Below are positions 1,625 through 28,734 of a stretch of DNA of 29,851 nucleotides, piece by piece. The translations under genes were made by a program, and so were the position numbers. The notes under the pieces were generated by a model. The model ran no database searches. It saw nothing but the letters and a program-made list of their open reading frames with translations, and was not told the origin of the DNA. The DNA comes from a virus: the IMG/VR virus record IMGVR_UViG_3300046028_004496, positions 1 to 29,851 of that record. One strand, given 5' to 3'. Every line of letters starts with the position of its first letter. The first letter of the stretch is position 1.

Positions 1625-1983
1625 CTGAATCACAAAAGATGTTTGAGGCGTGGTTTAAAACAACAAATCAAACATTGACTATGAAAGATTGGTCTTATAG
1701 ATGCTATCAGCAAGCATTGCAACACCAGCAGCAGCGTATTGAGGAGTTGGAAAGAAAGCGCATTGAAGCTGATAAACGCGCAACTAAGTACGCATTTCAA
1801 AATGATGTTATGGCTTTGCGTTTAGGTAAAACTGAAAGTAAATTAAAGATAGCGGTTGATGCTTTGAAGTTTTGCAGCGATTGCAAACATTATAACAATG
1901 AGCCAACAGGTAAGGTTGTATTAGTTGATTACGGTTGCAAAGCAGACGAAGCACTTAATTCATTAAATGGAGTTAAAAAATGA
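1621..1983 (+). CDS. Hypothetical early phage protein with coiled coil and Cys pair
   Basis: A 120-residue protein starting at ATG 1621 inside an ATGA overlap with the previous gene. The N-terminus (FEAWFKTTNQ, DWSYRCYQQAL) resembles the FExWL...AWxACQ opening seen in many small phage early proteins. Residues ~33-55 are a Gln/Glu/Arg-rich helix, probably coiled coil. The C-terminal third has CSDCKHY and one more Cys in YGCKAD, a possible small metal or disulfide cluster (four Cys counting Cys28). It ends ADEALNSLNG, like the EAL-type tails of neighbouring families. Its own stop overlaps the next start by four bases (1980-1983). No enzymatic function can be assigned. Confidence 0.6.
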   Translation: MTESQKMFEAWFKTTNQTLTMKDWSYRCYQQALQHQQQRIEELERKRIEADKRATKYAFQNDVMALRLGKTESKLKIAVDALKFCSDCKHYNNEPTGKVVLVDYGCKADEALNSLNGVKK

Positions 1984-2492
1984 CATTATTAAAAGAATCT
2001 ATTCTTTCTCAAGAAATGTTAAAAGATATTCTTTCTTATGATAAAGATACTGGCGTATTTATATGGATAAAGAAAATTAATCCAAGATCAGGTAAAGTAA
2101 AAGTGGGGAATATTGCAGGCGGTTTAAGCAATGGATACCGAGTAATTAAAATAAACAATAATAATTATTGTGCTCATAGGCTGGCTTGGCTTTATATATA
2201 TGGTAAGTGGCCTAAAAATGAGATAGACCATATTAATGGCATTAGGTCAGATAATAGAATTGAAAATTTAAGAGATGTATTACATTCAGAAAATTTGCAA
2301 AATCAAAGGAATCCTAGAAAAAATAGCAAACTAGGAATAATGGGGGCTTCATTACATACTGATGGTAGGTATCAAGCACATTTAAAACATAATGGAAAGA
2401 TTAAATATATTGGTCTATTTGATACGCCAGAACAGGCGCATGAAGCGTATCTAATAGAAAAACGTAAAATTCATAAATTTTGCACAATATAG
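1980..2492 (+). CDS. HNH endonuclease with AP2-type DNA-binding domain (copy 1)
   Basis: A 170-residue free-standing HNH nuclease of the phage homing type. Residues ~15-95 hold the HNH core: AHRLAWLYIYGKWP, then EIDHINGIRSDNRIENLR with the DH and N residues of an HNH_3-type active site. Residues ~115-165 form an AP2-like three-strand DNA-binding region (GRYQAHLKHNGKIKYIGLF, then EQAHEAY). Such proteins cut one or both DNA strands and can spread their own gene. The start is ATG 1980 (overlaps the previous stop, GGAG upstream). In the two 60-base stretches I counted, its G+C is 27% and 35%, against about 37-42% in neighbouring genes, consistent with separate acquisition. A paralogue of the same domain order lies at 20124-20678. 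Target site unknown. Confidence 0.85.
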   Translation: MTLLKESILSQEMLKDILSYDKDTGVFIWIKKINPRSGKVKVGNIAGGLSNGYRVIKINNNNYCAHRLAWLYIYGKWPKNEIDHINGIRSDNRIENLRDVLHSENLQNQRNPRKNSKLGIMGASLHTDGRYQAHLKHNGKIKYIGLFDTPEQAHEAYLIEKRKIHKFCTI

Positions 2493-4538: not shown

Positions 4539-7500
4539 TCACTTAACATTATCATCGTACATTGATATAAACATATCGTATATTTCAGCTTCTTCTTTCT
4601 CGATTTTGTTGATCTCGTCTATTTTCTGACTTAAAGATAATGTTTCATCTGCTTTAATTTCAGCTACTAAATCACGCTTAACGTTTGCCATTTTAATCAT
4701 GCGTTTAGATGCTTTAGCCATGTTTGCCAATACGCCTTTACGGTCTGTAAGATCAGTAAATGCATCTATATCTCTTGCTTTTTTTGCGTCTGCCAATTGA
4801 CCTGCTGCAACATCAGCTTCATTCTTACGCTCCCAAAATGCTGCACGCAAATCTCTAATTCCAGTTTCGCGCACAAATCTACGCACTACTGGAATATCTC
4901 TTGCATCTTGAGGAGCAACACCTTGTAATCCATTAATAATAATGTTCCCTGAATCTAAAACAAACTGCCCTGTACCACCAGTAAGTGACTTAACCCAATA
5001 TTTAAGCGTTTCCGGTGAAACATCTATCAATCCAGCTTCAAAATCAGATCCGCCTGTAATTAAGTTTAAGCCACCTGCTGTTGTGTCATAAAGGCTTCCA
5101 TATGTTCCGCGATTCATTAATTGTGAATCAGGTGTAGATTCTTTCCATTTTCTTGGTGTAATTGGATTGCCAAAGTTATCCTGGTTGACTAATTCAGTTG
5201 CACCAACGGCCATCTTAGGTGTGGTAGGCAATACCTGGAATAAATTAATATCGCCGTTTTCATCAATCGGTTTGCCAATTGCCGATACGTTTTCAAATAC
5301 GCTTGATGCTAAACGAATAGCCAACTTATCCAAGTCTTTGCCTTGTTGCGCATCCAGCATGACATTACCCAACGTCCAGAACATACGGTATCCGTAAGGT
5401 AAGGTGATCGTAACTTGAACGCCAAACATATCAATTACAAGGTTTCCATCTTTCACATAGTCAGGCGTGTTGTTCCATTTTTCTTTATCTTCATCATCGC
5501 CACTTAATTGCATCAATCCTACTGTAATTGCTGCAAGCGTCATGCTGCCAGCTAACGCTCTAGCCTGATTTTTATGTGGGGAATCAAATAAAGCATCATA
5601 GATCAGCTTTGTGCCTTGCACAGATGGATTAAAAAACAAGTAGAGCGCACCAGCTGCATTTGATTTTTCACCCTTACGATTAAAGTTCATTAAGTTCTTA
5701 GCTTGTGCAGCAGATTTAGCCTTGCTCATTCCGCTTTCACTTAATGTTTTATACGTGGCAACACGTAGCGCATTTTCCGTAATGGCATTTAGATTTTCCA
5801 TCAACGATAAGAAATGTCCGATAACCGGTATTTTTTTAAATCCAGATATTCCAGATTTTAAAGCTGCCATTGTATGCGCTGTTTTTTTACTCTTGCCTTC
5901 GCCTATTGATTTTGTATAAACCCGATCATAAGTAGCTCTGGCCCCGGAATACTCATCAAATGAAGCTTGTATATCATTGCCGATACGTTCTAAGTCTGAA
6001 AGATATGCGCCGCCGGTTGAGCCGCCCATAGCTCTATACTCATTAACTAATGAAGATGCACCTTTATTTTTAAAATGCTTAACCAGTTCTTTAACTGCAT
6101 TAGGATAGTTAGCAAATATTTTTGCTGCAGTTGTAAAACCTTCATTGCCTGTCAGCGTGATAAAGCCCTGTATTGCGTCACGAATAGGGTTGGTTAAAAT
6201 AAAGTCCGGGCTATAACCGGTATAAACTTTAGATAAGAAGTTGTTAATTTCTCTTGATGCGCCAAGTATAGAATTCAGATGCTCTACACCTAAGTTTTTA
6301 TATTCACGCGCTGCAATTTCATCATTAATCTGCACCCTTACCGCATGACCAGCAATGTAAACGTTCACCTCGTTATCGGCTAACATTGGTGAAGCTTGCA
6401 ACATAACGCGAACAGGGTCTTGAGTCTTATCAATTGAGAAGTCTGATCTTGTGGCACCTAATGCAGCTTGTGCTTGAATGTACATATTAGCTTCAATCTT
6501 TGTATCAAAAGATGCAAGGTCTAAGCCTTTATGTGCAACTACATAAGCAGTTTCACCTTGTTTCAATACCTTTCGCTTTACTGGTTTGCTGATAGTGATA
6601 ATGTCATCATTTTGTACTTCAAGTGCAAATTTAATCAGCGCTTTACCTACGCGATTTTTTTCATCTAACGTAATTGCTGATTCATGGTCACGTAAAATAT
6701 TCTCAATAATAGCTTCATCACGTAAGCCGTGGCCTAAGCGTTGTTTTGTTTTACCATTTACATGAAGCCCTTTACCAAGTCCGGCCTTAATGTTGTCATC
6801 ACCACCTTTAACCGGCACATAAACATCATAGGTATTTTCCCATGCTGCTACCATTTCTGGCGTAAGCAATCCGGAATCAAGTTTGATCTGCTTTGTCTTA
6901 TCTGTGATTGAGCGCCATTCATTGGCAATGGTTTTTAATTCAGCAAAGTTAGGCACGGCTTTAAAATCTTTCATAGATGCCGCTGCATCAGCATCTGATA
7001 TGCCGTAAGCAGTAGCATCTACATCACCTTGCAATTCTCTAGCGCGCTTGTTGGCCTCTGGTGCGTGTTGCACTTTTAAATAATCACCAACTTGCTCCAT
7101 CGTAATGCCAGCAGACTGCGTGCGCTCGATTAAAGGCTTTACAAATCCTTCTCTGAAATCTTCTTTGCGAGTAGATATGCGGCCACTCATTAATGTTTCT
7201 GATAAGAAAACATCTGCAGCCTCAGATAGGTTTACGCCTTGAGAAATAACCCAATCTTGCAATACTTTAAAGCGGTTGAATTTGTCTTGAATAACACGTT
7301 GAGTTGCCTGCGCCTTTGTTTCCTCTGGCACAGAGCTTTGTGGGGTGCTGCGAGAGTATAAAGCGTCAGTTAATCTATTAGACCGTAGTTGCGAGGCCCC
7401 ATCCCCCACGCCAGAGTTAGCCAGCCATGATCGTCCAGCTGCTTCCTCGCGTAAAATGGAACCGATTGTAGCCGCGATTTTAAGCGTACCACGGCCTGCT

Positions 7501-10500
7501 GCTCCCTCGGTGACATTTCCTCGAATGTCCTGCGCGAGTTTTTCAAAGTCATCATCGGTGAATTGCTCGCCTGTGATGGTGTTTGTGAAGTCGCCTGTAT
7601 CTCTACTGTATTCAACATTTTCAATTCCCGGAGCTTGCTCTTTGGTTACATTGTATGTGGCAAATAGCAAATGCGCAAGGTTGAATTGATCATCCCCTGT
7701 TTTCCATGAAAGGCCATATTTCCCAAGTGCTTGCAGCTGGTCTTTATGTGGCTTGATAAAGTCTGTGTCACCGAACTTAGTAGCCAGTGAAGCCATGTTT
7801 ACCATTCTGCGAATAATAGCTGCAGATGTAATGCCTTCTGGATCACCAATAAATACTTTGCCATTATTGGCCGCATAGTTGCCAATGATTGTATAAAGTA
7901 AAGAACCACCGTCACCCTCTTTTGAATCGGCAATATTAACCCATACGTTATTATCTTTTTCAGTAACGTAAGTTACGTTTTTGTTTAGCGCAGATTTAAA
8001 AATGTAAGTTGTTTCATCGTCACCGTCCATGTTTCTTACTTTGGTAACTGTAATAATGCCTTCTGAAACTTCTTTCGCAACCTTGTCTAAATCAGTTTCC
8101 ATTGAAACAGGGTAGCGGTAAGGCGTATCACCAAGTTCACCGATTACTTTAGTCCATGCCATCACCAGTTTTTTAGCATCTGCTTCTGGTATTTCTTGCA
8201 CGCCAAATGAAATGTCTTTTTGATCACGGTTAAATGCGGCAACCATATCAGAAACAAACTGTTGCTTGTTGGCCCCATTCACTACAAAGCTGCGCGCAGG
8301 AATAATGTAGTCATTGATAATTTCATTGTCTGAAAGATCAAGTTTCACGCCGATACTGCGTAGGAATTTACGAATAGCTACAATCGCTGATTTAACAAAG
8401 CTTAATTGCGGTGCGGTCTGCGCCATTTCTGCAAGAACTTCTTCTGCAGCAATACGTTTGTCACTTACTTTAGTTAAGTCAAGGCCGTATTGTTTGGCCT
8501 TTTTAGTCATATCAGCTTTACGCAACAAAGCCACTCGGTCAAGTATTGCACTAAGCTCTTTGCCAAATGTACCACGCAGGCCATAGTGACCTAGTGTTTC
8601 ATGGAACATGACGCGCACAACATCGGCTGCGCTGTTCATTTCACTAGCTACAATGTAAACCTTGCCTGCATCAAAGAAACCTTCTGGCTGCCCGGCTGCG
8701 CCTTGCGATAACTGTCTGTCGTTCTCTTCGCGTACTGCTTTGCGAATAGCCGGGTCGTTCATATCATCAACAACGATTATTTCAGGTGCATTTTTCCAGT
8801 TAGCGCGAATAGCGTTTACTGCTTTTTGTACTGAGGCTTTTGGTAAGCCAGTTATTTTTACAGCATCGCGCTTAAATAAAGGCAGGCCGCCCATTACTTT
8901 CTCGCGCATTTCAGGTGTGATAGTGAAGCCTAGTTGTTGCTTGTAACGTAATGCATTATAAACATTGCTACCAACTTCAATAAGTTCTCCATTATCTGCA
9001 GCTTTATCTAGTACGGATTCAAACTTTTCGTCTGATACGGTTTGCATGTTGATTGACTCAACTTTGCCGCCTATTTTCTTGAGTACGTCTTTAGCAACTT
9101 TAGGCACAATGCTGTCATAGAACGTGCGCATACCTTCGCCGCCTACTTTAAGATCCACGCCAGACAACTCATTCATGTAGCCATATTTGCCTTGTACTTG
9201 CGTGCGACTCCCTTCACCGTCAATAATTTTCTTGGAAATTTCCTTTCCTACAAAATCTTCTAACTTGTTTTCGGAAATATCATCTCCAAGCATATTGCCG
9301 CGGCCACCAGTAAGTGCGCTTACAGCATAAGTACCATTTTCATTTTTTGCATACAGCAGACTATCAACCTGCTTACTCAAATCATACAAATCAGCCGCTT
9401 GCTGGCCATTGATTAAAGCAACCTTATCAAATCCGTTTTCAGCCGCATAACGTACCATGCGTTTGAGTGCGAGCGATAAATAAGCATCGGTCTTTTCAAC
9501 GAAAGGCGCTGTAGGAATTAACCCTGCTTGTGGCTTATAAGAATCAATCAGGTACGGATTTGATTTTCTATTAGCTTTAACATAATCAAAACTTTCTTGT
9601 TGCGTTTTAAATTCAGCAACAACTACTTTTGTATCGTTATCAATTACTTTAAACGGAGTTTTATCAGCAAATCCTTTTTTACGCCCATCAGACGACCAAT
9701 CACTTTGCAGTTCATTAATAAACAAAACCTTATTGCCGTCAGCATCTACACGCTCGTCAAATCTTACGTGTGCGAGAATGTTTTTTTGGTCAAAGTGACC
9801 AGATTTGTAGGTTTCAGGCTTAATCTCAACCATTCTATTTAGTGCATCTTGGGCTTCTTCCTGTGTATAGTAAACATAAGGCAGCGCATTAGGGTCACCA
9901 TCTTTTTCAATGTAATACCGTTCTTCACCACGATAATCAACAGGGTTAATTTTCAAACGTGACAGTAGATTTTCATCTATCGTTGATTTGCTAGGAAGCG
10001 TCAGCAACAACTCTTTATAGTTCTCTCCGCCTGCCACGGTGTATTTTTCGTACTTGGTTTCATCTACATATTCAGGAGTTGAGCGCAAGCGATCATCTAA
10101 ATCATTAAACTCATTTTCTAGCGATTCATATTTAACTTTTGCATCACCAGTAAGATCAGGAATTATTCCAAATTCTTCTACAAGTTTTGTAACTTCATCG
10201 TTAATTTCTTCCATGCGAGATTCAACACGCTCACGCCATTTATCGCCAAGCATCGTTTCCGTAACCTGCACACCGTTAGAATTTAAGTAATCCAACACTT
10301 GTTCTTTAGTGACTAATCCTGTTTTAAAATCAAGCCATTCATTTACGCCTGTCCACTCAATTTCATCTGGCTTAACGCCTTTTTGAGTTAGGTTTTTAAT
10401 CATGCCTTTCCAAATAGAACCTTGCGCTTTATTGGTTTTAATTTCATCAATAGCATTTGAAAGTGCTGAGTAGAAAATTGGTGCGCTGACAGAATTGCCA

Positions 10501-13500
10501 CGGCTAAACATAGCTACGCCGCCGTTGTCGGCTTCCTGTTTCTCGACAACTACCATACGCGCATTAACGCTAGTATTTACCGGCAATGAAGCGTCTTTGA
10601 ACGTACCTTCTTCTAGCTTCTCGGAAGTACCACCTACTGATTCAAGCCAATCACGGAACTCGGTAGCACGTTTGTCACTACCAAAAAATACACCTTCGCC
10701 CATAATAGCGACTAGCTTACCGTTTGGTTTAAGCAAGTTATAGGCGTGCCGAATATGTTCTTCATCGCGGCGATTGCTGAATGGTGGATTCATGATAATG
10801 CGGTCATATTTCTCGGAAATATCCAGGAAGTCACTGCCAACCACATTAAAACCTTTAAGTTCTAATAGTTCGCGTCTGTCACCATTAAACTCAACTACAT
10901 CAGGTTCAAAGCCTGCATCACGAATACGCTCGGCAATATGCCCCATACCGGCAGAAGGCTCTAATACATTCATGCCATCCTGAATATCTGCCGCGTCAAT
11001 CATTTCATCAGCGGTGCTTGCCGGTGTCGGGAAGAAGTCTAAGCCGTCATTACGGCGGCCTATCATCTTGCGTTCAAGTTCTTTGATTTTATCCGGCTGC
11101 TTCGTATTCTCTTTAAGTCCAATGAACTCACGTAATGCTGCACGCATTTCAGCAGGGTTCTCAATGCCCATACGTGCTAATTTTTCACGCTTGTCATAAG
11201 CATTGTCAAACTGCCAAGGCATGTTTAATTTGCTGGATTTGCGATTTGCTTTGCCAATCTTTTCAACAATATCTTTCCCGAGATCCGCAGACAGAGTAAT
11301 TTGCTTATCATCATCACCATCCCATACGCCTCGCTCTTTAGCGGCACTAGGGCTGTCAATAATGATATTTTCACCACGCTTGAATGGCAAAACTATTGCC
11401 TTGCCTTTAAAACCAGAGCGTTTAATTGCCTCTTCTGCCAATGATTTAGAACTGAATACTGCACGCTCACCTGTACTTGTTGTGAATCGTGATACTTTAT
11501 AGATATTCTCTTTTGCAAATTTCAAATAAGCATCGGTAACATCATCGGCAACGGATAGAATGCGATTGCCAAGCAACTTCAACCCATCAGTTTCAGCCAT
11601 AGCTCGGCCTAAACTTGCCAAATCTGAGCGATACAATGTATATGCAGGAAAGTCCGCGTAATCCGCTGTTTCTTTTGTCGGTGCATCATACTGATGTTTC
11701 TCATAATCCCCATAAGCAGGATATTCGGCACGCAATTTTGTGTACTGCGCGGCACTTGTCAGGCTTTGCAATAATTCAACCTGTACTTTTTGGCGCACCT
11801 TGCCTAAGTATTTGGCGGCTCCTGATTCAATTGCCTGTGCGATATTACGCATGGTAATGGCCATTGCCTTATCTGCACTTGCTGCAGCTTCTGCGCGTGC
11901 TGCCATACCTGCCCTGCGGCTGGTGTTAGATTTGCGCTCACGGCCTAATTCTTCATCGGCTTTTTCTTCTAACTTATCAGCCATTTCAGTTAAGCGCTCT
12001 ACCGCTGATTGTGACTTGTCATCCTCGAATGCACTGCGGCGTTCTTTGGCTTGCTCTTTTGCGGCAGAATTATCACCGCCAGCTAATTGCACAAAGGCTT
12101 CTGCATTTTCTCTGGTAGTAAATTGGAAGCCTGGCACTGCACCGCGACCACGGAATGATGAATAGTAACCGCCAAGTTTTTTCGCACCGGAATTAAGTGT
12201 GTTGTAATCCTCTTTGCTGACACGTTCAGAAAGTTGCACCACGAATAAATCATGGCCTTTCTGTGTGTGCTTGGTTTCAATGATGCTACCTTCTACCGTT
12301 TGACCGGCAACGCTTACGCTACTCTGTGCTAATTCTTTGCGGCCTGCTCGGTCTGCAATAGTTCGTTCTGCATAAAGATTGTCATAGGTTTCACGATGAT
12401 CCGGCGTAAGCGTCATGCGTGCTTCTTTGAGTGACATACCATCACCCATTTTTCCGCGCAAATAATTAGTATAGTCATCTAGCGTTTTAGGGTCTTGCAT
12501 CCCTTCTTTACGCTCTGCTAATCTGGACTCGCGTTCTGCCTTGGCTTCCTGCAATTTATACATCGCTTTATCAAGCGATTCTTGAGTTATAGCCTCAACT
12601 TGAGATTTGATGCTTTTATATTTATCTTCACCAAATCCGTATGAATAACTTGTAAGCCCAGATTCGCCAGGTAATAAAAAGTCGCTTACCATATCAGCAT
12701 AAAGCGCACTCACTACACGGTCTTTTTTCTCGCTCTTATAGCGTGATTCTAAGCGTGCGCCGCCACGGTCAAATAACTGTTGCTTGGTAAAGTTCTGATT
12801 TAAGTACTCAGTGATAGATTTTTCATTCTCGATTAAGTAGTTAAATGCCGCTTTGTAATCATCGGCATTGGCAATGCCTTTGCTGTATTCATCCATTGCA
12901 TTGTCGTATAGGCTAAGTGGAGTTTGTAATTTCTCTTCTTGTGCTGTCGGCTCTGCATAAGCATCAGCCACCTCATCGGCCGTAACTTTCCCCTCGCGCA
13001 CATCTTTAATTGTGTCGAGCTTCTCCTTACCTTTAACGCCTGCTGCGGTGAGTGCTTCTGTGGCTTTGGTTACTTCGTCAATTGCTTGACCGTTGCTTGA
13101 TTGATTAACTGTATTTTCTGCAACGTCCGCGCCAGTGCTGGACTCTGTTGTTGATTGTGCTTTTAATTCTTTAATCTCTGCACGTAATTCATTGATTGTG
13201 TCATTTACCCTACCTACGTTTGCATTGTAAGTAGTAGTCTGCGCTCTGGTTGCTGATCCATTGCGGTACTTTTCCATATGCTTTGTCTGCATATCAGTAC
13301 GTTTTGCAATTTCTTTTTCAAGCCTAGCTTCTAAAGATTGAATCTCTTTACTTGGCTGCGCGACTTCTGGCGCTGTAAGTAAATCACCCTGCCCTGCAAA
13401 CTGGTTATCAATAACCTTTGCATCGTTATCTTTGGTAGTTTTTGCATCTTTACCAGTAGCGGTTAGATCAAAACTATCTGCAGCAATTGCTTGGCGTGCT

Positions 13501-16379
13501 TTGCGCTCGTCCTCAAGCTTTGCCGCTGCATCGGCTTTTTCTGCTTCGCTACTGGCCTTGGTTTCTGCCTCTTGCGCCGCAATGCCTGCGTTTATTTCTT
13601 CATTGGTTTGGCCTGCTAGAGCAAAATCATCAGTTACTTGCGCTTGCTCACTGGTGTTAGTTTGCGCTCCTTCTTGAGTTCCTTGGCTGCTTCCAGTACC
13701 GCCATTCTCGCTGTCGGTGTTAAAGACGCGAGCATCTGTAGCACTTTCTCTTTCTTCGCTACTTGCTTGTTGGAGTTGTCCATTTATTTCATCCTCTGTA
13801 AGTTCGTCTGCTACGTCTGCAACTGCGTTGCCTTCATATTGCAATGCCTTGAGCTCTTCTTCAACTGCGTAAGGCAGCACGCTTTCACCATTGCGGATTC
13901 TATCCGCTAGGTAATCATACGCCTCTGTTGAATCAAATGCTTCATCATTTGCACCGTTGGCTTCAAGGCGCATGTTGTACGGAAGGTAATCATCCAGGTC
14001 GCCGCCTTCGATCAAACCTTTTAATGAGCGCTTGCTGTTTAATTTAAATATCTTGTTGTAACCGCCCGGCGCAAAGCCACGCTGCTCACCGGTAATATCT
14101 AATTTTTCAGAATTTAAAATACCGCCCAAATCATTGATTGTAGTTAGCAGCGATTTAATTTTAGGCGCTTTAGGTTTAGCGGCTTTTGGTTTTGGTGTGC
14201 TAACTTCTTTTGCGCCTTCTGCAACCTGTGCAGATGGGAACTCTGAAACATTAGTTAGCAAGTCTTTAATTGGTGCATTCAAACGAATAACATCAACGTT
14301 ATCTTCATTCTGTAGCTTTGATAACCATTGGTGGTGTCCATCTAATACGTGATTATCAGATGAAACTAGAATAGAACGATCACCGCCAACGTATTCACTA
14401 GCCTGTTTAACTTTAGCTTCCGAAAATTCCTGTTGTGTTGGTTTGAGTGATGACGCCGGTACCGTTTCCTGCTCATGGCTAATGCCACGCGCATTTAGAA
14501 AATTGACCATGGCGCCACGGTGTTCCGCTTTAATCTGCGGCATTTCTGAACGTGGAATATTTAACGTGCCGGTATCAGGGTTAAATGCGGTCCACTCTTT
14601 ATTAATCTTTTCGCCGGCCACCGGCACTTGTACGTCTTTTGCCGTTTCATCGACACGTTTTTGTGATGTGTTTACGCTATCGACATTAGTAATGCCGCGC
14701 AAAGCCAATTCAGCATCAATTTTGCTGATAACTGTTGCGTCCGTAGTCATGCTGCGCATCTGCGGCAGAAAGTCGTCTGCAGCAGCTGCAAATGGGCGAT
14801 CTAGTGTACTGTCGGTATTGCTTCCAGTTCCAGTAGCCACATTGCCCGGCTCGCTTGATGTAAATGTTTCGGTAGCGTTACCCAATCCTGATCCGTCTGG
14901 CTGTACAGGTAAATCTGCCACGCCTCCTTGAGGCTGATTATCTGCGCCTTCAATGGTTCCTGTAGCCAATCCGGTAGCGGCATCATTCGTATTGCTGACA
15001 TTATCATCCCCTAGAATATCAGCTGCATTAATTGCCTCTGTAGCGCCTTGAACTTGCGCAAGTAAGTCTGTATCGGTGATTGAGTTTAATAAGCCTGGTG
15101 CTGCCGGAATATCCAAAGCTTTTTCAGCCAAAGCAATAGCATCTTCTACGGTTGCATCTGGATTAGTGATGTTGGCTAGTGCGTTGTCGGCTTCGGCAGT
15201 TTTAGCTTGATCTTCTTGTTTCTTTTGCTGTGAAGCATTAAAGGCCACTAACAATTGCTTATTAATTTGCTCGGCTTCATTAGTGCCTGCCGGTGCGTCC
15301 AGTTTGCTTGCAATACTAGTTAGAATTGCACCGCCTGCGCCCATGCCGCTAGATTGCAAGATAGTTGCAAGCGCGGTATCTTTAACAGCCTGCTTGTAAT
15401 CTTCAAAACTAGCGTTTTGATTTAAGCCAATTTCCGGGGTCTTATCAACTAAGAATTGCAGCGTAGTTGTAAACTCTTCTGCAGGCAGTTCTTTTAAACT
15501 GCTTTCCAGCATGGCCGTACCAAGTTCAGCAATGCCATTGCCTTTAACGGCTTTATTTAAACCTTTGGTAAGCTTGTCAAAGCCACCTAGTTTTTCGCCT
15601 ATCACTTCGGCGGCGGCCATTGGTGCAGATCTAAATGCTGATTGTAATGGGCTTAAATCTTTATCGCGGCCTTCGTTATACTCTTGCAAGGCTACACCGC
15701 CAAACATAGCAGGCAATGCACTGCCGCCGGTAGCTGCACCCACTACTAAAGCCGGGGCCGTATTGATCACAGATGATATGGCGTTAGCGCCTGCCTCTGG
15801 CAAATCTTGCACAATTGATTCTTTTGCAAAGCCTTCAACTGGCGTGCCGCGCAATACTGCACGATTCTCAATTTCTTTTGCGTAAGCGTTTTGATTTTCA
15901 GCTACTTTAGCCAAAGTTTCAGAATCGGTTATATCAGCAATAGACTTGATTAAGCCTGCTTCCATTTTACCAAGTCCAGCATACCCACGATTCAAGCCAA
16001 CTTTAGCAACGCCAGAAAAGCCATCTACAATTTCAGCGCCTTTATTAAGCGTGTTTGGCTTCTTGTTTTCTTCAACAACTTTTTTAAATGATTTATCTGC
16101 AGTCTGATCTGGCTTAACTTCTTTGCCATCCATGCCTTCAACTACTGACTTGGTGCGCAATTCGTCTGCAATGGCTAAAGGCAATCTAAGCGCATTGTCT
16201 TTAATGTAGCTTGCAGCTTCTTTAACTGTGCCGCCAAACGTTCTCTCTGGCGCTTTTGGTGTGCTTGCTTGGGATGGGGCTTTTAGAATGTCACTTTCAA
16301 TAGCAGACGTAATATCCGCATCGGTCATTGAATCAGGAAAGTCAACAAGGCCAACGCCAGGTACATCAATACGTTTCAT
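4539..16379 (-). CDS. Giant polyvalent ejected virion protein (methyltransferase, ParB-like and metallopeptidase-like domains)
   Basis: About 3,946 residues in one frame, 40% of the window. Visible order: N-terminal IDVPGVGLVDFPDSM segment; Ala/Gly-rich helical region ~100-370; Ser/Thr/Gly linkers ~400-545; ParB-like nuclease region ~640-710 with LDGHHQW (D679-W684); coiled coils ~940-1500; class I adenine methyltransferase ~1775-1960 with motif I EPSAGMGH (1807-1814) and motif IV NPPF (1864-1867); large-polyvalent-protein segments with INELQSDWSSDGRKKG (~2220) and TPEMREKVMGGLPLF (~2488); metallopeptidase-like HETLGHYG (2593-2600); then an LPD38-like region from ~3300 with hydrophobic patches to ~3700 and a charged helical C-terminus. 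I see no helicase motifs, unlike P1 DarB. Such proteins are packaged and ejected to protect incoming DNA or form a conduit; that role is inferred from family and neighbours. ATG 16379 is preferred over TTG 16385 because GGAG is then eight bases upstream. Confidence 0.9.
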   Translation of the reverse strand: MKRIDVPGVGLVDFPDSMTDADITSAIESDILKAPSQASTPKAPERTFGGTVKEAASYIKDNALRLPLAIADELRTKSVVEGMDGKEVKPDQTADKSFKKVVEENKKPNTLNKGAEIVDGFSGVAKVGLNRGYAGLGKMEAGLIKSIADITDSETLAKVAENQNAYAKEIENRAVLRGTPVEGFAKESIVQDLPEAGANAISSVINTAPALVVGAATGGSALPAMFGGVALQEYNEGRDKDLSPLQSAFRSAPMAAAEVIGEKLGGFDKLTKGLNKAVKGNGIAELGTAMLESSLKELPAEEFTTTLQFLVDKTPEIGLNQNASFEDYKQAVKDTALATILQSSGMGAGGAILTSIASKLDAPAGTNEAEQINKQLLVAFNASQQKKQEDQAKTAEADNALANITNPDATVEDAIALAEKALDIPAAPGLLNSITDTDLLAQVQGATEAINAADILGDDNVSNTNDAATGLATGTIEGADNQPQGGVADLPVQPDGSGLGNATETFTSSEPGNVATGTGSNTDSTLDRPFAAAADDFLPQMRSMTTDATVISKIDAELALRGITNVDSVNTSQKRVDETAKDVQVPVAGEKINKEWTAFNPDTGTLNIPRSEMPQIKAEHRGAMVNFLNARGISHEQETVPASSLKPTQQEFSEAKVKQASEYVGGDRSILVSSDNHVLDGHHQWLSKLQNEDNVDVIRLNAPIKDLLTNVSEFPSAQVAEGAKEVSTPKPKAAKPKAPKIKSLLTTINDLGGILNSEKLDITGEQRGFAPGGYNKIFKLNSKRSLKGLIEGGDLDDYLPYNMRLEANGANDEAFDSTEAYDYLADRIRNGESVLPYAVEEELKALQYEGNAVADVADELTEDEINGQLQQASSEERESATDARVFNTDSENGGTGSSQGTQEGAQTNTSEQAQVTDDFALAGQTNEEINAGIAAQEAETKASSEAEKADAAAKLEDERKARQAIAADSFDLTATGKDAKTTKDNDAKVIDNQFAGQGDLLTAPEVAQPSKEIQSLEARLEKEIAKRTDMQTKHMEKYRNGSATRAQTTTYNANVGRVNDTINELRAEIKELKAQSTTESSTGADVAENTVNQSSNGQAIDEVTKATEALTAAGVKGKEKLDTIKDVREGKVTADEVADAYAEPTAQEEKLQTPLSLYDNAMDEYSKGIANADDYKAAFNYLIENEKSITEYLNQNFTKQQLFDRGGARLESRYKSEKKDRVVSALYADMVSDFLLPGESGLTSYSYGFGEDKYKSIKSQVEAITQESLDKAMYKLQEAKAERESRLAERKEGMQDPKTLDDYTNYLRGKMGDGMSLKEARMTLTPDHRETYDNLYAERTIADRAGRKELAQSSVSVAGQTVEGSIIETKHTQKGHDLFVVQLSERVSKEDYNTLNSGAKKLGGYYSSFRGRGAVPGFQFTTRENAEAFVQLAGGDNSAAKEQAKERRSAFEDDKSQSAVERLTEMADKLEEKADEELGRERKSNTSRRAGMAARAEAAASADKAMAITMRNIAQAIESGAAKYLGKVRQKVQVELLQSLTSAAQYTKLRAEYPAYGDYEKHQYDAPTKETADYADFPAYTLYRSDLASLGRAMAETDGLKLLGNRILSVADDVTDAYLKFAKENIYKVSRFTTSTGERAVFSSKSLAEEAIKRSGFKGKAIVLPFKRGENIIIDSPSAAKERGVWDGDDDKQITLSADLGKDIVEKIGKANRKSSKLNMPWQFDNAYDKREKLARMGIENPAEMRAALREFIGLKENTKQPDKIKELERKMIGRRNDGLDFFPTPASTADEMIDAADIQDGMNVLEPSAGMGHIAERIRDAGFEPDVVEFNGDRRELLELKGFNVVGSDFLDISEKYDRIIMNPPFSNRRDEEHIRHAYNLLKPNGKLVAIMGEGVFFGSDKRATEFRDWLESVGGTSEKLEEGTFKDASLPVNTSVNARMVVVEKQEADNGGVAMFSRGNSVSAPIFYSALSNAIDEIKTNKAQGSIWKGMIKNLTQKGVKPDEIEWTGVNEWLDFKTGLVTKEQVLDYLNSNGVQVTETMLGDKWRERVESRMEEINDEVTKLVEEFGIIPDLTGDAKVKYESLENEFNDLDDRLRSTPEYVDETKYEKYTVAGGENYKELLLTLPSKSTIDENLLSRLKINPVDYRGEERYYIEKDGDPNALPYVYYTQEEAQDALNRMVEIKPETYKSGHFDQKNILAHVRFDERVDADGNKVLFINELQSDWSSDGRKKGFADKTPFKVIDNDTKVVVAEFKTQQESFDYVKANRKSNPYLIDSYKPQAGLIPTAPFVEKTDAYLSLALKRMVRYAAENGFDKVALINGQQAADLYDLSKQVDSLLYAKNENGTYAVSALTGGRGNMLGDDISENKLEDFVGKEISKKIIDGEGSRTQVQGKYGYMNELSGVDLKVGGEGMRTFYDSIVPKVAKDVLKKIGGKVESINMQTVSDEKFESVLDKAADNGELIEVGSNVYNALRYKQQLGFTITPEMREKVMGGLPLFKRDAVKITGLPKASVQKAVNAIRANWKNAPEIIVVDDMNDPAIRKAVREENDRQLSQGAAGQPEGFFDAGKVYIVASEMNSAADVVRVMFHETLGHYGLRGTFGKELSAILDRVALLRKADMTKKAKQYGLDLTKVSDKRIAAEEVLAEMAQTAPQLSFVKSAIVAIRKFLRSIGVKLDLSDNEIINDYIIPARSFVVNGANKQQFVSDMVAAFNRDQKDISFGVQEIPEADAKKLVMAWTKVIGELGDTPYRYPVSMETDLDKVAKEVSEGIITVTKVRNMDGDDETTYIFKSALNKNVTYVTEKDNNVWVNIADSKEGDGGSLLYTIIGNYAANNGKVFIGDPEGITSAAIIRRMVNMASLATKFGDTDFIKPHKDQLQALGKYGLSWKTGDDQFNLAHLLFATYNVTKEQAPGIENVEYSRDTGDFTNTITGEQFTDDDFEKLAQDIRGNVTEGAAGRGTLKIAATIGSILREEAAGRSWLANSGVGDGASQLRSNRLTDALYSRSTPQSSVPEETKAQATQRVIQDKFNRFKVLQDWVISQGVNLSEAADVFLSETLMSGRISTRKEDFREGFVKPLIERTQSAGITMEQVGDYLKVQHAPEANKRARELQGDVDATAYGISDADAAASMKDFKAVPNFAELKTIANEWRSITDKTKQIKLDSGLLTPEMVAAWENTYDVYVPVKGGDDNIKAGLGKGLHVNGKTKQRLGHGLRDEAIIENILRDHESAITLDEKNRVGKALIKFALEVQNDDIITISKPVKRKVLKQGETAYVVAHKGLDLASFDTKIEANMYIQAQAALGATRSDFSIDKTQDPVRVMLQASPMLADNEVNVYIAGHAVRVQINDEIAAREYKNLGVEHLNSILGASREINNFLSKVYTGYSPDFILTNPIRDAIQGFITLTGNEGFTTAAKIFANYPNAVKELVKHFKNKGASSLVNEYRAMGGSTGGAYLSDLERIGNDIQASFDEYSGARATYDRVYTKSIGEGKSKKTAHTMAALKSGISGFKKIPVIGHFLSLMENLNAITENALRVATYKTLSESGMSKAKSAAQAKNLMNFNRKGEKSNAAGALYLFFNPSVQGTKLIYDALFDSPHKNQARALAGSMTLAAITVGLMQLSGDDEDKEKWNNTPDYVKDGNLVIDMFGVQVTITLPYGYRMFWTLGNVMLDAQQGKDLDKLAIRLASSVFENVSAIGKPIDENGDINLFQVLPTTPKMAVGATELVNQDNFGNPITPRKWKESTPDSQLMNRGTYGSLYDTTAGGLNLITGGSDFEAGLIDVSPETLKYWVKSLTGGTGQFVLDSGNIIINGLQGVAPQDARDIPVVRRFVRETGIRDLRAAFWERKNEADVAAGQLADAKKARDIDAFTDLTDRKGVLANMAKASKRMIKMANVKRDLVAEIKADETLSLSQKIDEINKIEKEEAEIYDMFISMYDDNVK

Positions 16380-16414
16380 GCACAATACTCCAATTAATTG
16401 TAAGAGTATTGTGC
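16380..16414 (-). promoter_or_regulatory. Hairpin over the giant gene's Shine-Dalgarno
   Basis: Perfect 11-base inverted repeat: GCACAATACTC (16380-16390) and GAGTATTGTGC (16404-16414), with a 13-base centre that contains the palindrome CAATTAATTG. In the - strand RNA the stem ends immediately before the ATG (16379), and three of the four Shine-Dalgarno bases (GGAG) are inside it. This can hide the ribosome site, act as an RNase III-type processing site between the upstream gene and the giant gene, or be a DNA operator. It lacks a U tract, so it is not an intrinsic terminator. Confidence 0.65.
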
Positions 16415-16431
16415 GTTAACCCATGTGTGTG

Positions 16432-17268
16432 CTAATCGTAAACTACGCCCTTGCCCGGTACGTATCTTCCAACTTTATCAGCCTGTTTAGGCACTTTTGT
16501 TTTGACTGAGCGCTCTTTAATTGGATTACCGGACGTATCAACTTCTATTGTTTTCTCGGTGACTTCATCCATGACTTCATCATCCTGCTTAATCTTATTC
16601 AGCTTATCAAAGCCTTTATCAGTAAGCTTGCCATTCTTAACATACTCGGCATTATCTTTGTATGCCTCGATAAAATCACGCTTACGTGTTGCCGCTTCCG
16701 TTTCTGCGCGCGGTGCGCGTCCTGCTGCACTTACTTTGGCTTTCTGACTGACTAATATACTAGCTGCTTTAGCCGGGTCGCCACCGGCCATGCGCCACGC
16801 TAATTCAAGTTCGGTTTTAGGTACATTTAATTGCTTACCACCTTCTAATACTATTTTTGCGGTACCGCTTTGCTTATCAAACGCCATTACAGACCCATCA
16901 TCTAACTTAACACTTTCAAAGCCTTTGCTTTCTGGTGCCATTTTTTTAATGGTTTCCGCTGATTTAAAATCGCCGCCTTTTATAGCGCGATCAAATCCAT
17001 CTTGCATAGTGGCCGGTCTGGTTGTTGCGCCTTGTTCGCCTTGCACTTCAACGTCTGTCATGTACGCTTTATTGCGATCCATCTCTGCCGCCGCACGTTT
17101 ATCATCTATTTTGTACCCGGCTTCTTTTAACAGTAGCTCTTTTTCAACTTGCGCATCCATTAATGCAAGCTTTAAGTCAAAGTCTTGTTTTTTATCCAGC
17201 TCTTGGCCTCGCCCTTCCGAGTAACCTTTAGCCGCACCTGCCGCCATAAATCCTAGTAATCCTGACAT
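16432..17268 (-). CDS. Putative internal virion/ejection protein
   Basis: A 278-residue protein. The N-terminus MSGLLGFMAAGAAKGYSEG is Gly/Ala-rich and amphipathic and is followed by a long charged helix (~25-70), a layout common to podophage internal virion proteins encoded next to the giant ejected protein. The middle (DGSVMAFDKQSGTAKIVLEGG, ~121-142) looks like a short beta unit. The C-terminal part is Lys-rich and ends GRYVPGKGVVYD. The start ATG overlaps the previous stop by one base (TAATG), indicating coupling. The giant gene follows after 52 bases holding the hairpin. No catalytic motif is visible; role inferred from context. Confidence 0.6.
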   Translation of the reverse strand: MSGLLGFMAAGAAKGYSEGRGQELDKKQDFDLKLALMDAQVEKELLLKEAGYKIDDKRAAAEMDRNKAYMTDVEVQGEQGATTRPATMQDGFDRAIKGGDFKSAETIKKMAPESKGFESVKLDDGSVMAFDKQSGTAKIVLEGGKQLNVPKTELELAWRMAGGDPAKAASILVSQKAKVSAAGRAPRAETEAATRKRDFIEAYKDNAEYVKNGKLTDKGFDKLNKIKQDDEVMDEVTEKTIEVDTSGNPIKERSVKTKVPKQADKVGRYVPGKGVVYD

Positions 17269-20053: not shown

Positions 20054-20092
20054 TTGACAAAGCCACATTGAACGACTAATTCAATGTGGCTT
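20054..20092 (+). promoter_or_regulatory. TTGACA hexamer plus 13-base inverted repeat
   Basis: A perfect TTGACA (20054-20059) directly precedes a perfect inverted repeat: AAGCCACATTGAA (20060-20072), seven-base centre CGACTAA, TTCAATGTGGCTT (20080-20092). It may be an operator overlapping a promoter for the HNH gene that starts 32 bases later; a -10 match is only partial (ACTAAT 20075-20080, spacing 15). Alternatively, read on -, it may be a terminator for the lysis unit, but only a short TTT follows the stem. Confidence 0.5.
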
Positions 20093-20123: not shown

Positions 20124-20678
20124 ATGACTAAGCAAATTCTAACGCAAGAAGAACTTAAATCGCAACTACATTACGATCCTGATACTGGAATTTTTACAAG
20201 AACTAAAACATTAACAAATTGCTGTAAGATTGGAGATGTTGCTGGGTCTAAATTAAATAATGGATACATCATAATAAGAGTATTAAATAAAAAATATTTA
20301 GCTCACAGATTGGCTTGGTTATATATGACTGGGAATTTTCCAAGTCAAACTATAGATCACATCAATAGAATTAAAGATGATAATAGATTGTGCAATTTAA
20401 GACATGCAGATCAATCACATAATAATTTAAATGTTTGTAAAAACGTAAGCAATACATCAGGATATAAAGGCGTAAACTGGAATAAAAACAGAAAAAAATG
20501 GGCAGTAAGATGCACAGTTAATGGAGAAAGAATATTTTTAGGATATTTTGACGATGTTAAATTAGCAAACATTGCTTATGATGATTTTGCAAAAAAACAC
20601 CATGGTGAGTTTTATTATGGTCACTTACAACCAACAAGTTCACAAACAGAATCTCCCCACACACGAATCTCATTGTAA
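20124..20678 (+). CDS. HNH endonuclease with AP2-type domain (copy 2), against the late genes
   Basis: A 184-residue HNH nuclease of the same architecture as the gene at 1980-2492: NGYIIIRVLNKKYLAHRLAW and TIDHINRIKDDNRLCNLRH form the HNH region (~45-100). The AP2-like part is GYKGVNWNKNRKKWAVRCTV to FLGYFDDVKLANIAYDDFA (~113-160). Start ATG 20124 with GAGAGG seven bases upstream. It is the only + strand gene in the late half and its end overlaps the i-spanin gene by 58 bases antisense. Four 60-base stretches that I counted have 27-33% G+C, against 43% in two flanking late-gene stretches. This strongly suggests a mobile homing-type insertion between the lysis and ejection units. Probable self-spreading nickase/nuclease; its target is unknown. 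Confidence 0.88.
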   Translation: MTKQILTQEELKSQLHYDPDTGIFTRTKTLTNCCKIGDVAGSKLNNGYIIIRVLNKKYLAHRLAWLYMTGNFPSQTIDHINRIKDDNRLCNLRHADQSHNNLNVCKNVSNTSGYKGVNWNKNRKKWAVRCTVNGERIFLGYFDDVKLANIAYDDFAKKHHGEFYYGHLQPTSSQTESPHTRISL

Positions 20679-28705: not shown

Positions 28706-28734
28706 AAAAAAAGCCGCAGTTAAGCGGCTTTTTT
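28706..28734. terminator. Bidirectional intrinsic terminator after capsid-side genes
   Basis: Stem AAAAAAAGCCGC / GCGGCTTTTTT with loop AGTTAA; T runs are present on both strands. It is 24 bases after the stop of the 28759-29124 gene on the - strand, separating the highly expressed capsid-side genes from the head-tail unit. Confidence 0.9.

What the first reader, a model, noticed from the sequence alone, without database searches (positions are those of the whole stretch)
16380..16414. An 11-base perfect hairpin holds the ribosome site of the giant gene
GCACAATACTC and GAGTATTGTGC flank a 13-base centre and end directly before ATG 16379, with GAG of the GGAG site in the stem. For a 3,946-residue ejected protein needed in low copy, this could limit translation, couple it to ribosomes from the upstream gene (52 bases away), or be an RNase III-type cut that separates the two messages. 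Perfect arms of this length at a start codon are unlikely by chance.
Basis: partly seen in the sequence, partly recalled or inferred. Interest (0 to 1): 0.68.

Follow-up and report, generated by a model that had tools for sequence, protein, structure and literature searches.

The report
Hairpin hiding giant gene's ribosome site
In front of a giant phage gene, whose protein is probably ejected into the host with the viral DNA, the messenger RNA can fold into a tight hairpin that buries the ribosome landing site; the trick is known from other phage genes, but it recurs with unrelated sequences at giant genes of at least two other phage groups.

Summary
The hairpin is real and exactly where stated. 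On the minus strand GCACAAUACUCU / GGAGUAUUGUGC (12 bp including one G-U, 11-nt loop, -17.7 kcal/mol) ends on the base before AUG 16379, and all of the GGAG ribosome site is paired. It is the strongest start-site hairpin of 20 minus-strand starts in the window, with the least accessible ribosome site. Among 1,032 starts in related loci, only this gene and the giant genes of Escherichia phages PTXU04 and Pondi have a ribosome-site-burying stem of 11 bp or more. DarB-like giant genes of Burkholderia Lessievirus phages also carry a long leader hairpin with the ribosome site inside. The window's hairpin itself is not conserved: its nearest relatives have a terminator-like hairpin in the same gap, and most distant relatives have no gap, so there is no covariation evidence. 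Most likely it is a cis-acting translational brake of a known phage type (as in T4 e, soc, I-TevI). A ribosome stopping at the upstream TAG does not reach the stem, so simple coupling is weak and the release step is open. RNase III cutting and termination are poorly supported. All evidence is computational.

The parts
16403..16414 (-). 5' arm GCACAATACTCT
16392..16402 (-). 11-nt loop TACAATTAATT
16380..16391 (-). 3' arm GGAGTATTGTGC, holding the ribosome site GGAG (16391-16388) and the 8-nt spacer
4539..16379 (-). giant ORF, 3,946 aa, ATG start; Pfam LPD37 and LPD38 matches and a weak methyltransferase match (polyvalent, DarB-like)
   Evidence: start supported by alignment
16432..17268 (-). 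upstream gene, 278 aa, stop TAG 16434-16432, 52 nt before the giant ATG; the order 153-aa, ~280-aa, giant gene is shared with relatives
16416..16424 (-). 2-codon ORF ATGGGTTAA in the gap, ending 1 nt before the stem; possible reinitiation site (speculative)
   Evidence: read; no evidence of use
16408..16435 (-). weak promoter-like match TTAGCA-16-CACAAT whose start point (~16401) would fall in the loop and drop the 5' arm; chance of such a match about 10%

Best explanation
The RNA leader of the giant gene folds, as soon as it is made, into a 12-bp hairpin that buries the whole ribosome site and ends on the start codon. On the long late message this keeps new ribosomes off the giant ORF and so lowers or delays synthesis of a 3,946-residue, probably ejected protein needed in few copies. 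The structure and the burial of the ribosome site are predicted directly from sequence. That translation is lowered, that the purpose is stoichiometry or timing, and how the hairpin is opened are inferred. Because a -17.7 kcal/mol stem should block initiation almost completely at equilibrium (general knowledge), some release step is likely: reinitiation in the gap, a transcript starting inside the hairpin, or a factor in trans.
For: 12-bp stem with the whole GGAG inside, -17.7 kcal/mol, 0 of 200 shuffles as good; opening SD-AUG costs 11.9 kcal/mol. Strongest hairpin and least accessible ribosome site (0.24) of 20 minus-strand starts in the window. Of 1,032 starts in related loci, only this giant gene and the giant genes of PTXU04 and Pondi have SD-occluding stems of at least 11 bp, although only 21 of the 1,032 starts belong to genes of 1,000 aa or more. 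Lessievirus DarB-like giants have leader hairpins of about -36 to -51 kcal/mol with the ribosome site in the 3' arm; the SD stem is 94% paired over 12 sequences against 45-60% when slid. The same architecture is established for T4 e, soc, 49 and I-TevI (PMC3014915, PMC2988022).
Against: Not conserved: L002, L010/L011 and L007 have a terminator-like hairpin in the gap instead, and most other relatives have no gap, so there is no covariation for this hairpin. Sequestration in L002 and L007 is not above shuffles. Hairpins of some kind are common in the 35-90-nt gaps of these late operons (22 of 59). In Lessievirus the covariation score does not clearly exceed shuffles (49 of 500 reach it). The host is unknown and there is no expression data.
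Confidence: 0.6

Rival explanations
1. Translational coupling: ribosomes from the upstream gene open the hairpin, so the giant protein is made only in proportion to the upstream protein.
For: Same strand and 52-nt gap; E. coli rpmI-rplT is coupled by RNA unfolding across a 52-nt gap and f1 VII/IX by a hairpin (PMC12548453). The 2-codon ORF ATGGGTTAA ends 1 nt before the stem, so a ribosome there would cover most of the 5' arm. Most relatives have the giant start abutting or overlapping the upstream stop, an arrangement typical of coupling.
Against: A ribosome at the TAG covering 10-15 nt leaves all 12 bp intact, and even 18-20 nt leaves a 9-11 bp stem. Spacings over 30 nt usually show little coupling (PMC12548453). 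The 2-codon ORF has no evident ribosome site and no known conservation.
Confidence: 0.15
2. Timing switch of the T4 soc/e/I-TevI type: long read-through transcripts carry the closed hairpin, while a promoter in the gap starts transcripts inside the loop that lack the 5' arm and are translated freely.
For: One promoter-like match (TTAGCA-16-CACAAT, 8 of 12) would start at about 16401, inside the loop. The switch is documented for T4-type late genes (PMC2988022).
Against: Only 8 of 12 matches; about 10% of random 22-nt intervals contain such a start. The phage's late promoters are unknown.
Confidence: 0.1
3. Message boundary: the hairpin blocks 3' exonucleases, terminates transcription weakly or is cut, so the abundant upstream structural messages are separated from the giant message.
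For: The nearest relatives and two cultured phages (Bas95, vB_Pun_Y3) carry terminator-like hairpins in the equivalent gap.
Against: No U-tract follows the stem on either strand, the stem is not G+C-rich, and the terminator scan does not list it. 12 bp is short for RNase III (general knowledge). Neither reading explains why the ribosome site lies inside the stem.
Confidence: 0.1
4. Chance, or a DNA-level dyad such as a protein-binding operator, with no effect on the message.
For: Perfect dyad not conserved in relatives; no second copy of the dyad in its own record or in IMG/VR.
Against: Shuffle rate of an SD-occluding stem this long is 0.004 for this leader, and the only comparable cases in related loci are also giant genes. 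A lone dyad inside a late operon is an unusual operator site, and no copy of the arm with fewer than two mismatches exists elsewhere in the window.
Confidence: 0.05

Closest known systems
T4 e, soc, 49 and I-TevI ribosome-site hairpins (PMC3014915, PMC2988022)
   Same: Stable helix hides the ribosome site of a phage gene on a polycistronic message; consensus ribosome site about 8 nt before AUG.
   Different: T4 cases have late promoters placed so that late transcripts lack the 5' arm, and experimental support; here neither is shown, and the gene is a giant, probably ejected protein.
Giant-gene leader of Escherichia phages PTXU04 and Pondi (L019:22690, L031)
   Same: 11-bp stem holding the whole ribosome site 8 nt from ATG of a ~2,200-aa gene in the same place of a related structural module.
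   Different: Unrelated sequence, 7-nt loop, more G+C-rich; hairpin ends 5 nt before ATG; those phages carry a csrA gene, the window record does not (it may be incomplete).
Lessievirus (Bcep22-like) DarB-like giant-gene leader
   Same: Gap of ~76-84 nt folds into one hairpin with the ribosome site in the 3' arm before a ~4,500-aa giant gene whose C-terminal part is related to this one.
   Different: Much longer (about -36 to -51 kcal/mol) and conserved across the genus; unrelated sequence; mostly GTG start.
E. coli rpmI-rplT and phage f1 VII-IX coupling (PMC12548453)
   Same: Inhibitory structure at the downstream start, co-directional pair; rpmI-rplT also has a 52-nt gap.
   Different: There the upstream ribosome disturbs the structure; here the stem begins 18 nt past the stop and is not reached by a terminating ribosome.

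Membership tests
SD-sequestering translational hairpin | ribosome site inside a stable helix at the start of the gene | tested here: met
   12 bp, GGAG fully paired, -17.7 kcal/mol; outlier of the window's starts
SD-sequestering translational hairpin | stem reduces translation, restored by compensatory mutation | not testable with these tools
   needs reporter or ribosome profiling
T4 soc/e/I-TevI timing switch | promoter whose transcripts lack the 5' arm | tested here: inconclusive
   one 8/12 match with start in the loop, about 10% by chance
Translational coupling by unfolding | ribosome terminating on the upstream gene covers or crosses part of the stem | tested here: not met
   terminating ribosome covering +10 to +15 nt leaves 12 bp; reinitiation on ATGGGTTAA not testable here
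Intrinsic terminator | G+C-rich stem followed by a U-tract | tested here: not met
   no U run after the stem on either strand; not listed by the scan
Conserved structured RNA element | same structure with compensatory change in relatives | tested here: not met
   nearest relatives have a different hairpin or no gap; no Rfam match at gathering score
RNase III site | long double-stranded stem with mapped cleavage | not tested
   12 bp is short for the enzyme (general knowledge); no cleavage data

The most novel reading that the evidence does not exclude
Giant ejected 'polyvalent' proteins of podoviruses are often, as a property of the gene class and not of any one sequence, kept low or late by a leader hairpin that hides their ribosome site; the hairpin has been invented independently in several lineages (this group, Xuquatrovirus, Lessievirus), with a terminator in the same gap as the alternative solution, and is opened by a dedicated phage or host signal.
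Probability: 0.2. Interest if true: 0.65.

Novelty: new member of a known kind. Interest (0 to 1): 0.45.

Why it matters
Giant ejected proteins are made from the same long late message as abundant structural proteins, yet few copies fit in a virion. A leader brake would be a simple answer to how that ratio is set. The cultured E. coli phages PTXU04 and Pondi and the Lessievirus phages carry comparable leaders, so the idea can be tested in laboratory strains without culturing the window's phage.

Tried and rejected
Homologous hairpins: the exact dyad occurs nowhere in IMG/VR; no relative of the giant start or of the 153-aa neighbour was found in bacterial genomes, nor of the giant start in plasmids; a search with the shared N-terminus returned only the four known records. 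Terminator plus SD-hiding hybrid in L002, L010, L007: L007 has a 9-bp stem over its ribosome site outside its terminator, but SD pairing there is not above shuffles (p = 0.25), so it is not claimed. Leader peptide through the hairpin: PTXU04 has a short ORF that crosses its hairpin and ends in TAATG, but the frame is not kept in Pondi (sequences), so dropped. csrA as regulator: present in the tested cultured phages with SD-hiding hairpins, but also in Vibrio phages without one, and in none of the window's near records; left as a lead. The claim 'every giant gene has a brake' is false: most relatives, HMO-2011-type phages, Pavtok and MetMV have no such hairpin.

Full report
What is there. On the minus strand, GCACAATACTC and GAGTATTGTGC flank 13 bases and end on the base before ATG 16379. 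Folding adds a U-G pair, giving 12 bp and an 11-nt loop at -17.7 kcal/mol; 0 of 200 shuffles of the 43-mer fold as well (the stretch was chosen for its stem, so this overstates significance). All of GGAG (16391-16388), 8 nt from ATG, is paired. The ORF is 3,946 aa with Pfam LPD37 and LPD38 and a weak methyltransferase match, the make-up of phage polyvalent proteins thought to be ejected with DNA (PMC5512222). The ATG is supported by N-terminal alignment with L002. The upstream 278-aa gene ends at TAG 16434-16432, 52 nt away.

Is it more than chance. A shuffled window is expected to hold about 0.17 perfect stems of 11 bp or more with loop 3-20; the window holds three (this one, 20060-20092, 28707-28734). 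With the ribosome site held fixed and the rest of this leader shuffled, an SD-occluding stem of 11 bp or more arises with probability 0.004. In the window the giant gene has the lowest hairpin energy and the least accessible ribosome site (0.24) of 20 minus-strand starts. In the wider leader the fold is only moderately unusual (MFE p = 0.025, SD pairing p = 0.03).

Relatives. The giant start has no match in cultured phages, plasmids or bacterial genomes. IMG/VR gave a handful of records. In L002, L010/L011 and L007 the gap of 69-77 nt holds a terminator-like hairpin (GGGTTGGATA..TATCCAACCC TTTATTGTTT; GGGATAGAGC..GCTTTATCCC TTTTTTTATTT), not this one. In L003 and L005, and in nearly all of the further records reached through the head-closure and 153-aa proteins, the giant start abuts or overlaps the upstream stop.

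The wider pattern. In all starts with a ribosome site from the related loci fetched up to (1,032), only three have an SD-occluding uninterrupted stem of at least 11 bp: this gene and the giant genes of Escherichia phages PTXU04 and Pondi, whose identical hairpins share one origin. Only 21 of the 1,032 are genes of 1,000 aa or more, so two independent hits in that class are unlikely by chance (about 0.0004, my arithmetic; the loci were gathered around such genes and the test was framed after seeing PTXU04, so this is descriptive). Searching with the giant's C-terminal part then led to the Lessievirus phages, where the ~80-nt gap before the DarB-like giant folds into a hairpin of about -36 to -51 kcal/mol with the ribosome site in the 3' arm. 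Over 12 sequences 94% of cells of the SD stem pair, against 45-60% when slid, but double changes are few and 49 of 500 shuffles reach the covariation score. The JC1 paper does not use the word hairpin. As a control, hairpins of some kind are common in gaps of 35-90 nt of these operons (22 of 59 at p <= 0.02). All seven gaps before the gene in the giant's position in that set have one, against 15 of 52 others (the Bas95 gene in that position is only ~735 aa), yet in most the ribosome site lies outside the stem.

Mechanism. Opening SD to AUG costs 11.9 kcal/mol. By general knowledge of initiation energetics such a stem should nearly silence the gene, which implies a release step. A ribosome terminating at TAG and covering 10-15 nt leaves the stem whole, so plain coupling is weak; reinitiation at ATGGGTTAA, 1 nt before the stem, could open it. 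A promoter-like match would start transcripts in the loop, as in T4 soc and I-TevI, but such a match is expected in about 10% of intervals (PMC2988022, PMC3014915). A U-tract is absent, and 12 bp is short for RNase III. Best reading: a cis translational brake of a known phage type, release step open.

Shown: structure by prediction, burial of the site, rarity, recurrence at other giant genes. Inferred: effect on translation, purpose, release. Nothing here was measured.

Noticed in passing
L161:2732-2811, L166, L168-L170, L172, L174, L176-L180: Lessievirus giant-gene leader: the conserved 5'-arm stretch GGTTTGAT could also pair with a central ATCGAACC conserved in most members, so the leader may have two alternative folds. 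No Rfam match.
   Followed up: partly
L019, L031, L021, L161, L166, L168, L170 records: Cultured phages with SD-hiding giant-gene hairpins carry a csrA gene; Vibrio phages without the hairpin do too, so the link is unproven.
   Followed up: partly
window 20124-20678 (+) and 1980-2492 (+): Two ORFs: 1980-2492 looks like an HNH-type endonuclease by its sequence (my reading, not searched); 20124-20678 lies in the structural operon on the opposite strand.
   Followed up: no
window 28707-28734 and 20060-20092: Two further perfect hairpins between genes of the late operon, the first with A and T runs on both sides (terminator-like in both directions); such hairpins are common in gaps of these operons.
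   Followed up: partly
L002:4901-4971, L010:5631-5701, L007:3337-3415: A terminator-like hairpin ends about 20-30 nt before the giant start with little room for a promoter after it, so the giant gene would depend on read-through.
   Followed up: partly
L010/L011 giant gene: The first ~37 residues match L002 closely, then the protein diverges (27% to the window over the first 400 aa), as if giant genes are shuffled behind a shared start.
   Followed up: no
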